Below are positions 57,861 through 58,066 of a stretch of 64,000 bases of DNA, piece by piece. Below the pieces are notes generated by a model. It saw only the letters and a list, made by a program, of their open reading frames with translations, was not told the DNA's origin and did no database searches. Each line of letters opens with the position of its first letter. The first letter of the stretch is position 1. Location: positions 6,607,001-6,671,000 of the forward strand of contig NZ_CP160403.1 in assembly GCF_040782645.1 (NCBI RefSeq), read 5' to 3'. Both the position numbers and the translations under genes were made by a program. This DNA comes from Streptomyces sp. HUAS ZL42 (GTDB lineage: Bacteria; Actinomycetota; Actinomycetes; Streptomycetales; Streptomycetaceae).

Positions 57861-57905
57861 TCTCAGGCTTTTATCAGGGGCGTGTCAGGACGGGTGTGCC
57901 AGGAT
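57861..57905 (+). promoter_or_regulatory. SARP-type repeats and -10, tRNA promoter
   Basis: TCTCAGG (57861), TATCAGG (57872) and TGTCAGG (57883) recur every 11 bp. CAGGAT (57900-57905) follows after 10 bp and the tRNA begins 18 bp after that. This places a tRNA gene under the same type of control as the biosynthetic genes. Confidence 0.75.
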
Positions 57906-57923
57906 ATGAGCAACGAAAGGCGA

Positions 57924-58012
57924 GGAGAGGTACCCAAAGCGGCCGAATGGGGTCCGGTGGGGTATTCATCGGTCGGGCTCTGCCCACGCAGGTTCGAATC
58001 CTGCCCTCTCCG
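57924..58012 (+). tRNA. Serine-type (class II) tRNA with aberrant anticodon loop
   Basis: A full cloverleaf can be drawn. The 7-bp acceptor (GGAGAGG with CCTCTCC) has discriminator G73. The D arm is CCC/GGG with loop containing AGCGGCCGAA, as in serine tRNAs. The T arm is GCAGG-TTCGAAT-CCTGC. The long variable arm is GGGC-TCT-GCCC. The anticodon arm pairs as CCGGTG/CATCGG with loop GGGTATT, or 5 bp with a 9-nt loop. Neither gives U33 or a serine anticodon (NGA or GCU). CCA is not encoded (CCG). SerRS reads the variable arm and acceptor, not the anticodon, so charging with Ser is plausible while decoding is not. A dedicated promoter and terminator flank it. A decayed tRNA pseudogene is the alternative. 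Confidence 0.75.
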
Positions 58013-58028
58013 CCGGCGCACACCTAGG

Positions 58029-58066
58029 CACGCGCATCCCGGATTTCTCCGGGTGCGCGTGTCTTT
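58029..58066 (+). terminator. Intrinsic terminator of the tRNA transcript
   Basis: CACGCGCA/TGCGCGTG plus CCCGGA/TCCGGG form a 14-bp stem with one bulged T and loop TTTC, followed by TCTTT. It ends 54 nt after the tRNA. Confidence 0.85.

What the first reader, a model, noticed from the sequence alone, without database searches (positions are those of the whole stretch)
57861..58066. A serine-type tRNA that probably cannot decode, expressed as part of a biosynthetic cluster
Seen directly: a complete class II cloverleaf (57924-58012) with intact acceptor, D, T and long variable arms and G73, but an anticodon loop (GGGTATT or a 9-nt version) without U33 and without any serine anticodon. It has its own promoter with three 11-bp-spaced TCAG heptamers, as at other cluster promoters, and its own intrinsic terminator. 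Known: SerRS recognises the variable arm rather than the anticodon, and VlmA-type transferases use seryl-tRNA for metabolism; a DUF2156/VlmA-like gene lies 2.3 kb away. Inference: this is a dedicated seryl donor that bypasses the ribosome, comparable in idea to the non-translational glycyl-tRNAs of staphylococcal wall synthesis.
Basis: partly seen in the sequence, partly recalled or inferred. Interest (0 to 1): 0.93.

Follow-up and report, generated by a model that had tools for sequence, protein, structure and literature searches.

The report
Anticodon-less serine tRNA for antibiotic synthesis
In many Streptomyces and some relatives, gene clusters that appear to make azoxy-type natural products come with their own serine-type transfer RNA in which the part that reads the genetic code has become a closed hairpin, which suggests an RNA kept only to carry serine to a biosynthetic enzyme rather than to the ribosome.

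Summary
In detail: a class II, serine-type tRNA gene lies at 57924-58012, with a SARP-type promoter (three TCAG at exact 11-bp spacing) and no usable anticodon. It belongs to a family: a covariance model built from relatives finds members in 51 of 392 genomes of the genus, and there are named members in Salinispora, Microbispora, Sphaerisporangium, Kitasatospora and Actinacidiphila. Acceptor and T arms are 98-99% identical between members with unrelated flanks. The anticodon arm is a hairpin of variable length and sequence; none of 88 parsed arms has a canonical anticodon loop. All 51 genomes carry a VlmA-family (aminoacyl-tRNA-using) transferase gene, on the same contig within 32 kb in 43. 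A divergent VlmL-type SerRS occurs in 26 of these 51 and in 0 of 29 tested genomes with VlmA but without the RNA. Best explanation: a dedicated, SARP-controlled seryl carrier for VlmA-type enzymes of azoxy (valanimycin-type) pathways, unusable by the ribosome. Charging, transfer and expression are inferred. My literature searches showed no report of it; a 2014 review calls the diversion of Ser-tRNA into valanimycin unknown.

The parts
57863..57888 (+). Three TCAG repeats at exact 11-bp spacing (57863, 57874, 57885): SARP-type operator/promoter of the tRNA-like gene
   Evidence: 67 of 78 first-copy upstream regions of the family have at least 3 TCAG at 11-bp spacing, against 0.5% of random 130-mers from the fetched loci; conserved in 4 clusters
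57924..58012 (+). tRNASer-like, non-decoding RNA (whole mature part, no encoded CCA)
   Evidence: RF00005, 32.8 bits; family alignment, covarying helices; 91.1 bits with model R1, which was built with it
57924..57930 (+). acceptor stem 5' side GGAGAGG, pairs with 58005-58011; G73 at 58012
   Evidence: helix 99.1% paired over 49 sequences; 98.9% mean pairwise identity
57933..57951 (+). D arm (4 bp, CCCA/TGGG)
   Evidence: 99.5% paired; its innermost pair is G-C in 42 and A-U in 7 of 49
57953..57973 (+). anticodon arm turned into a 21-nt closed hairpin, no U33 and no serine anticodon
   Evidence: minimum-energy fold 7 bp and 5-nt loop; family loops 3-7 nt, 83 of 88 parsed arms not 17 nt long
57975..57985 (+). 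long variable arm GGGC-TCT-GCCC, one unpaired base (A) before C48
   Evidence: helix 98.5% paired
57988..58004 (+). T arm GCAGG-TTCGAAT-CCTGC (A51-U63)
   Evidence: 100% paired; 98.4% mean pairwise identity
58029..58066 (+). probable intrinsic terminator hairpin with TCTTT tail
   Evidence: stem conserved in 4 clusters; not called by the strict scan
58220..59290 (+). haem-oxygenase-like diiron protein directly downstream of the RNA gene
   Evidence: PF14518, 134.9 bits
60272..61267 (-). VlmA-like aminoacyl-tRNA-dependent transferase (PF09924, DUF2156 type)
   Evidence: PF09924, 213.1 bits (ORF 60272-61339)
61358..61431 (+). two further TCAG triples (first repeats at 61358 and 61406) between the VlmA-like and VlmH-like genes
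61617..62675 (+). acyl-CoA-dehydrogenase-like flavin enzyme (VlmH-like N-hydroxylase by position and family)
   Evidence: (ORF 61239-62675): PF02771 above its cut-off, PF02770 and PF00441 below; relatives in other VlmA loci
63215..63796 (+). flavin reductase (VlmR-like)
   Evidence: PF01613, 121.7 bits
42346..43074 (+). SARP (BTAD) regulator gene 15 kb away, a candidate activator (not all window genes were scanned)
   Evidence: PF03704, 127.4 bits

Best explanation
The gene makes a dedicated, non-decoding tRNASer. SARP activation of the cluster turns it on; the transcript is trimmed and given CCA like other tRNAs; a seryl-tRNA synthetase charges it (a VlmL-type enzyme where there is one, otherwise, as here, the housekeeping SerRS), because SerRS reads the acceptor, discriminator and long variable arm and not the anticodon. 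The charged RNA cannot be used on the ribosome because it has no anticodon loop, so its serine is reserved for the VlmA-type transferase, which moves it to a hydroxylamine on the way to an azoxy product. Shown here: the RNA family, its conserved and lost parts, its promoter repeats, and its association with VlmA and VlmL. Inferred: charging with serine, transfer by VlmA, exclusion from translation, SARP activation and the azoxy product.
For: Family with covariation: 94.3% of cells paired and 46 two-sided changes against 11.7 in shuffles. Acceptor and T arms 98.9% and 98.4% identical between members whose downstream flanks are hardly more alike than random, 59.6% against 58.2%: purifying selection. 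Anticodon arm a hairpin in 88 of 88 but canonical in none; loops of 3-5 nt in 83 of 88; 77 of 78 distinct arms more stable than the mean of their shuffles. Co-occurrence with VlmA at E<=1e-30: 49 of 51 genomes with the RNA against 31 of 341 without, P=1.8e-38; the other two have a divergent PF09924 gene within about 3.2 kb. Linkage: 43 of 51 on the same contig, all 43 within 32 kb, 24 within 2 kb. VlmL-type SerRS of 58% identity or more in 26 of 51 against 0 of 29. SARP-type triple repeats at 67 of 78 copies. Prediction met: of 9 named genomes whose VlmA locus lacked a nearby copy, 8 carry copies elsewhere, 1 to 15 each. Literature passages: VlmA uses Ser-tRNA, VlmL is an extra SerRS, VlmI (a SARP) has sites upstream of vlmJ and vlmA-vlmH; here the RNA lies directly upstream of a VlmJ-like gene in 9 of the 40 fetched loci.
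Against: No expression, charging or transfer data. 31 of 80 genomes with a VlmA-like protein lack the RNA, so such a transferase can exist without it; a review passage reports in vitro work on VlmA with Ser-tRNASer. The window's own genome has one SerRS only and no VlmL. One genome without the RNA (G079) holds an 86-residue piece 66% identical to VlmL, and G153 a 57% SerRS. One of 89 members (L115) has a 7-nt loop that ARAGORN reads as serine anticodon ACU, though without U33 and purine 37. 11 of 78 copies lack the full triple repeat. The azodyrecin authors propose alanyl-tRNA from the general pool. Genomes share ancestry, so the P values overstate independence; on the VlmA tree the trait needs only 4 changes.
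Confidence: 0.8

Rival explanations
1. A decaying tRNASer pseudogene or a remnant of an integration site.
For: Weakest tRNA score in its genome, no usable anticodon, many copies lie in the genome without conserved neighbours; one copy of the L100 array has lost part of its acceptor 3' side.
Against: Acceptor and T arms nearly invariant over unrelated flanks, two-sided changes in helices, anticodon arms kept as stable hairpins, SARP-type triple repeats kept at 67 of 78 copies, linkage to VlmA.
Confidence: 0.03
2. A decoding tRNA with an odd anticodon (bldA-like control or suppression) that ARAGORN or the reader misread.
For: ARAGORN assigns an isotype to many relatives (Pro, Lys, Arg, Trp, Cys and others); L115 reads as Ser ACU in a 7-nt loop.
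Against: Of 68 ARAGORN searches have no readable anticodon and the rest scatter over 17 isotypes, only 2 of them Ser; 0 of 88 arms has a 17-nt arm with U33 and a purine at 37; the own genome already has ordinary Ser tRNAs with GCU, UGA, CGA and GGA anticodons.
Confidence: 0.02
3. A regulatory decoy: an RNA that binds SerRS, RNase P, EF-Tu or a transferase without donating serine, like the Bacillus cereus pseudo-tRNA that acts as a regulatory RNA.
For: A pseudo-tRNA with a regulatory role is known (PMC3399842 passages); elbow and acceptor are the conserved parts.
Against: Association is with a transferase that uses aminoacyl-tRNA and with a SerRS of its own clade; acceptor end and G73 are kept; copy number rises to 15, which suits a carrier.
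Confidence: 0.08
4. A dedicated donor of another amino acid (alanine, glycine, tyrosine) rather than serine in some or all clusters.
For: Azodyrecin authors propose alanyl-tRNA for their VlmA homologue; class II shape is shared by Leu and Tyr tRNAs.
Against: G73, one unpaired base before C48 and the long variable arm fit tRNASer (recalled identity rules), and the associated synthetase passes the SerRS cut-off (TIGR00414, 391 bits against 301.65).
Confidence: 0.07

Closest known systems
Valanimycin pathway (VlmA, VlmL, VlmI) of Streptomyces viridifaciens
   Same: VlmA-family transferase, VlmH/VlmR-like genes, SARP-type triple repeats, and in relatives VlmJ-, VlmK- and VlmL-like genes. The names are given by family and position; no reference Vlm sequence was compared.
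   Different: The passages I read speak of Ser-tRNASer (or alanyl-tRNA) and no dedicated tRNA gene. The S. viridifaciens cluster itself was not available to me.
Staphylococcus aureus non-proteinogenic tRNAGly for peptidoglycan bridges
   Same: tRNAs reserved for a FemX-type transferase; also A51-U63 in the T stem (PMC4052509 section 7).
   Different: The published marks concern EF-Tu binding and loss of G18G19; that they keep a normal anticodon is recalled. Here G18 is kept in all 49 aligned members and G19 in at least 90%, and the anticodon loop itself is gone.
Bacillus cereus pseudo-tRNA (tRNAOther)
   Same: tRNA-like RNA that does not work in translation (PMC3399842 passages).
   Different: It has a Trp anticodon, is poorly aminoacylated and acts within a larger regulatory RNA; no transferase partner is mentioned in the passages I saw.
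tmRNA and viral tRNA-like structures (recalled)
   Same: Chargeable tRNA-like ends without a decoding anticodon.
   Different: Here the whole cloverleaf is kept and only the anticodon arm is rebuilt; the proposed use is small-molecule synthesis.

Membership tests
tRNA (Rfam RF00005) | Cloverleaf scoring above the gathering threshold | tested here: met
   32.8 bits against 29
Decoding tRNA | Anticodon arm of 5 bp with a 7-nt loop, U33 and purine 37 | tested here: not met
   0 of 88 parsed family arms; window arm is 21 nt
tRNASer | Class II, long variable arm, G73, one unpaired base before C48 (recalled identity rules) | tested here: met
   last base G in 88 of 89, the other being cut by a contig end
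tRNASer | Serine anticodon | tested here: not met
   window member none; 2 of 68 ARAGORN calls in the family are Ser, one of them (L115) in a 7-nt loop without U33 and purine 37
tRNASer | Charged with serine by SerRS | not testable with these tools
   indirect only: VlmL-type SerRS in 26 of 51 genomes
Non-translational donor tRNAs (staphylococcal tRNAGly type) | Association with an aminoacyl-tRNA-dependent transferase | tested here: met
   51 of 51 genomes have a VlmA-family gene
Non-translational donor tRNAs (staphylococcal tRNAGly type) | T-stem pairs weak for EF-Tu (A49-U65, A51-U63) | tested here: inconclusive
   A51-U63 in 84 of 84 members with a regular T arm (5 of 89 set aside), in 0 of 4 own Ser tRNAs, but also in 6 of 32 distinct own ordinary tRNAs; position 49-65 is G-C
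Valanimycin-type azoxy gene cluster | VlmA-, VlmH- and VlmR-like genes together | tested here: met
   window 60272-63796, at the level of domain families only
Valanimycin-type azoxy gene cluster | VlmO and VlmB homologues | not tested
   no reference sequence compared; a diiron and an AurF-like protein are present
Valanimycin-type azoxy gene cluster | VlmL (extra SerRS) in the cluster | tested here: not met
   own genome has one SerRS only; the related clusters L074, L114, L115, L116 and L118 have one
Valanimycin-type azoxy gene cluster | Azoxy product | not testable with these tools
   no chemistry

The most novel reading that the evidence does not exclude
Azoxy clusters carry a private aminoacyl channel: an anticodon-less tRNASer, in about half of the genomes examined together with its own divergent SerRS, forms a natural orthogonal synthetase-tRNA pair that works as a pure cofactor system outside the genetic code. 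Up to 15 copies spread over the genome, mostly with SARP-type repeats of their own, are switched on with the cluster to supply seryl flux without draining or poisoning translation.
Probability: 0.45. Interest if true: 0.96.

Novelty: new variant of a known kind. Interest (0 to 1): 0.92.

Why it matters
[quoted passage not shown] It offers a tRNA freed from decoding as a biosynthetic cofactor, a possible natural orthogonal SerRS-tRNA pair for engineering, a genome-mining marker for azoxy clusters, and a warning that ARAGORN calls many members as ordinary tRNAs of random isotype.

Tried and rejected
Pseudogene, decoding tRNA, decoy and other-amino-acid readings were considered and are ranked as rivals. 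The idea that members without a VlmA gene in the first 20-kb pieces belong to another system was dropped: VlmA was found further away, on other contigs, or as a divergent copy. A SerRS of 57% identity in G113, G153, G168 and a second one in G093 was set aside from the VlmL count because it is not on the contig of the VlmA gene (G113, G153, G168; draft genomes, so linkage is not excluded) or 0.9 Mb away (G093). This 57/58% line was drawn after seeing the result; with those enzymes the count is 28 of 51 against 1 of 29, P=1.7e-6. An EF-Tu-like hit at 47036-48346 looked interesting but is CysN, next to CysD. The A51-U63 pair as an EF-Tu escape mark is only suggestive, since 6 of 32 distinct own ordinary tRNAs share it (an earlier parse was less clean and is replaced by it). 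No larger repeated unit explaining the dispersed copies was seen by eye in about 100 bases of flank. Plastid, miRNA and RT-19 matches are far below their thresholds and were ignored. Searches for prior reports; the listings, and the passages I read of six papers, showed no dedicated tRNA in such clusters. Subscription papers are mostly not held; the 2008 valanimycin seryl-tRNA paper was not.

Limits: only 10 candidates per genome were scored, so 51 of 392 and the copy numbers there are lower bounds. The 31 genomes with VlmA but without the RNA were searched again with 138 candidates scored each, and gave 0 of 31 at E<=1e-7; the positive control of that setting is (150 scored), not the same call. 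Rows dropped: L131 9569-9755 (assembly gap of N) from all member counts; L135 could not be parsed for its arm (88 of 89); members with short or N-containing upstream sequence, second copies of tandem arrays and identical upstreams from the promoter count (78 used); 3 of 89 members without enough flank, and 9 of 900 sampled pairs with alike flanks; 5 of 89 with irregular or cut T arms; G097 and G370 from the SerRS search. Distances are between first listed coordinates, for one VlmA per genome (for G300 the far end of the gene was typed, so its true gap is smaller). The 17 VlmA loci without the RNA (L162-L178) come from 16 of the 31 such genomes.

Full report
OBSERVATION. The stretch 57924-58012 (+) scores as a tRNA over the whole RF00005 model at 32.8 bits, above the gathering score of 29. 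In the 9.87-Mb single-contig genome it is the last of 72 tRNA hits, and ARAGORN does not call it in the window. The genome has ordinary serine tRNAs with anticodons GCU, UGA, CGA and GGA, so no serine codon box needs this gene. Acceptor, D, variable and T arms are intact; the anticodon arm has 21 nt instead of 17 and folds alone as a 7-bp stem with a 5-nt loop. The unconstrained fold of the whole 89-mer does not have the D and anticodon arms as its minimum; the cloverleaf rests on the covariance-model match and on the family. Three TCAG at exact 11-bp spacing lie at 57863, 57874 and 57885, and a GC-rich hairpin followed by TCTTT lies downstream. That hairpin is conserved in four clusters, although the strict terminator scan does not call it.

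A FAMILY. A DNA search of 392 genomes of the genus with 57861-58066 hit 67 genomes at E<=1e-3, the own one included; some of these matches cover only the T-arm end. The better matches showed the same RNA with a changing anticodon arm. Forty neighbourhoods were fetched and 49 distinct sequences aligned. With a cloverleaf given by hand, 94.3% of cells pair, 10 pairs have changes on both sides and 46 cells show them, against 11.7 in shuffles; sliding the partners by one column drops pairing to 55-59%. The anticodon helix pairs in 74.0% of cells only, because its length varies and the alignment cannot follow it. A covariance model (R1) scores the members tested at 72-93 bits and the 12 long ordinary tRNA hits of the own genome at 51.7 or less. 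In 392 genomes there is a gap between 72.1 and 62.6 bits; 51 genomes lie above it. Tandem arrays of two to four copies occur, genomes with 10 copies scored, which is the cap of that call, and 15 in Streptomyces griseofuscus DSM 40191. A draw of 119 genomes of the order gave 13 positives, all of the same genus; a draw of 246 of the class, 103 genera, gave 2, the own genome and one of the same genus, so outside the genus it is rare. Named VlmA loci add Salinispora mooreana, Microbispora oryzae, two Sphaerisporangium, Kitasatospora and Actinacidiphila.

WHAT IS KEPT AND WHAT IS LOST. Over 891 pairs (900 sampled among 86 members, 9 with alike flanks dropped) the mean identity is 98.9% for the acceptor with G73, 98.4% for the T arm, 81.3% for the D arm and 64.5% for anticodon plus variable arm; the downstream flank is at 59.6% and shuffled flank at 58.2%. 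So acceptor and T arm are under strong purifying selection, while the anticodon arm is nearly free in sequence. It is not free in structure: all 88 parsed arms fold into a hairpin, with loops of 4 nt in 50, 5 in 20, 3 in 13, 6 in 3 and 7 in 2; only 5 arms have 17 nt, and none of those combines U33 with a purine at 37. Of 78 distinct arms, 77 are more stable than the mean of their shuffles, mean -7.6 against -3.1 kcal/mol. ARAGORN, given CCA and neutral flanks, of 89 members; 17 have no readable anticodon, the others scatter over 17 isotypes, and 2 are Ser: L137, and L115, whose 7-nt loop would read ACU but lacks U33 and purine 37. In native context the calls scatter likewise.

PARTNERS. A VlmA-like protein (query 60272-61267, E<=1e-30) is in 80 of 392 genomes: in 49 of the 51 with the RNA and in 31 of the 341 without, Fisher P=1.8e-38. 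The 31 stayed negative when searched again with more candidates scored (0 of 31). The two exceptions, G300 and G168, have a divergent PF09924 protein 35-36% identical to the window's, within about 3.2 kb of the RNA. In 43 of 51 genomes the RNA and the VlmA gene are on one contig, and there the nearest copy is within 32 kb in all 43 and within 2 kb in 24. Of 48 named VlmA loci 39 have the RNA within the fetched piece; of the other nine, eight have it elsewhere in the genome, and Streptomyces graminilatus has none found. Its contig ends 1.9 kb past the VlmA gene, before the place where the sister loci L120 and L123 have the RNA, and its contig bears a SerRS piece of the VlmL type at one edge. 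On a tree of 85 VlmA rows, presence of the RNA needs 4 changes against 16.6 for shuffled labels (quick search, SH-aLRT support only). A SerRS of 58-100% identity to the cluster SerRS of L088, while other whole SerRS are at 57% or at 36-44%, is in 26 of 51 genomes with the RNA and 0 of 29 tested genomes with VlmA but no RNA, P=5.7e-7; with four 57% enzymes included the numbers are 28 of 51 and 1 of 29, P=1.7e-6, and an 86-residue 66% piece in G079, a genome without the RNA, was not counted. In 23 of the 26 the SerRS is on the contig of the VlmA gene, within 28 kb; in G229, G213 and G194 it is on another contig, in G194 on that of the RNA. The L088 SerRS passes NCBI's serS cut-off. The window's own genome has one SerRS only.

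CLUSTER TYPE. Near the RNA the window has a haem-oxygenase-like diiron protein, a VlmA-like transferase, an acyl-CoA-dehydrogenase-like flavin enzyme and a flavin reductase, then an AurF-like gene (below its Pfam cut-off) and an amino acid permease at and beyond the window's end. Other loci place a gene of one family (c14) directly downstream of the RNA in nine loci; the member tested is diacylglycerol-kinase-like (as VlmJ is; recalled), and an MmgE/PrpD-like gene (as VlmK is; recalled) or a SerRS lies further on in some. A SARP review states that VlmI sites with three heptamers lie upstream of vlmJ and of vlmA-vlmH (PMC10972967, passages). In the loci here the RNA gene sits between its upstream repeats and the VlmJ-like gene, and in the window two further triples lie between the VlmA-like and VlmH-like genes. 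The promoter mark is strong: 67 of 78 first-copy upstream regions have at least three TCAG at 11-bp spacing, against 0.5% of random 130-mers of the fetched loci and 0.006% of shuffles; L084 and L085, two of the nine with a c14 gene, are among the 5 with fewer than two. Of 9 dispersed copies in loci without conserved neighbours, 7 have at least two such repeats.

MECHANISM. The simplest reading is a seryl carrier kept out of translation. Shown: RNA family, lost anticodon, kept acceptor and elbow, promoter repeats, partners. Inferred: that SerRS charges it, which fits class II shape, G73, one unpaired base before C48 and the known indifference of SerRS to the anticodon (recalled); that VlmA takes serine from it, which fits the invariant acceptor and T arms and the FemX precedent of reading the acceptor end (PMC4052509 section 7); and that the ribosome cannot use it. 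A 2014 review writes that how Ser-tRNASer is directed into the valanimycin pathway, and which elements VlmA and VlmL read, are unknown (PMC4052509, passage). Reviews of 2024 and 2026 and the 2022 azodyrecin paper describe seryl- or alanyl-tRNA without a dedicated tRNA gene in the passages I read.

AGAINST. VlmA-type enzymes exist without the RNA in 31 of 80 genomes, so it is a refinement and not a chemical need. There are no expression or biochemical data. The association tests count related genomes. That the product is an azoxy compound is inferred from gene content at the level of domain families.

VERDICT.

Noticed in passing
L093, L101, L105, L106, L107, L108, L110, L111; S. griseofuscus DSM 40191 (G475): Many genomes hold several dispersed copies of the RNA gene in unrelated surroundings; the 14 chromosomal copies of S. 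griseofuscus lie within about 0.75 Mb of the chromosome ends, the 15th on another contig. How they spread is unexplained.
   Followed up: partly
L088:3050-4324 and relatives: A SerRS clade far from the other SerRS of the same genomes (36-44% identity), found almost only in genomes with the RNA; a candidate orthogonal synthetase.
   Followed up: partly
G000 4968229-4968334 (L042): A 106-nt tRNA-like hit with an enlarged anticodon arm in the own genome, 0.75 kb from the only SerRS gene (4969190-4970437, minus strand); 40.6 bits with RF00005, 43.5 with R1, not called by ARAGORN. Possibly another non-decoding tRNASer relative or a regulator.
   Followed up: no
L131:9569-9755: A second tandem copy with an assembly gap (run of N) inside the anticodon arm.
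   Followed up: no
L140:9698-9785 and L146:9442-9529, 9720-9807: Salinispora and Microbispora members have one extra base in the 5' side of the T arm (GCAGCG or GCAGTG before TTCGAAT).
   Followed up: no
L100:9865-9947: First copy of a four-copy array lacks bases in the acceptor 3' side, a possibly broken copy beside three whole ones.
   Followed up: no
L134:9680-9785: A member whose anticodon arm has grown to 33 nt with a long extra stem.
   Followed up: no
window 47036-49299 and 53517-55208: CysN and CysD (sulfate adenylyltransferase) genes lie near the cluster, and a nitrite/sulfite-reductase-like gene is conserved next to the RNA in L073-L075.
   Followed up: partly
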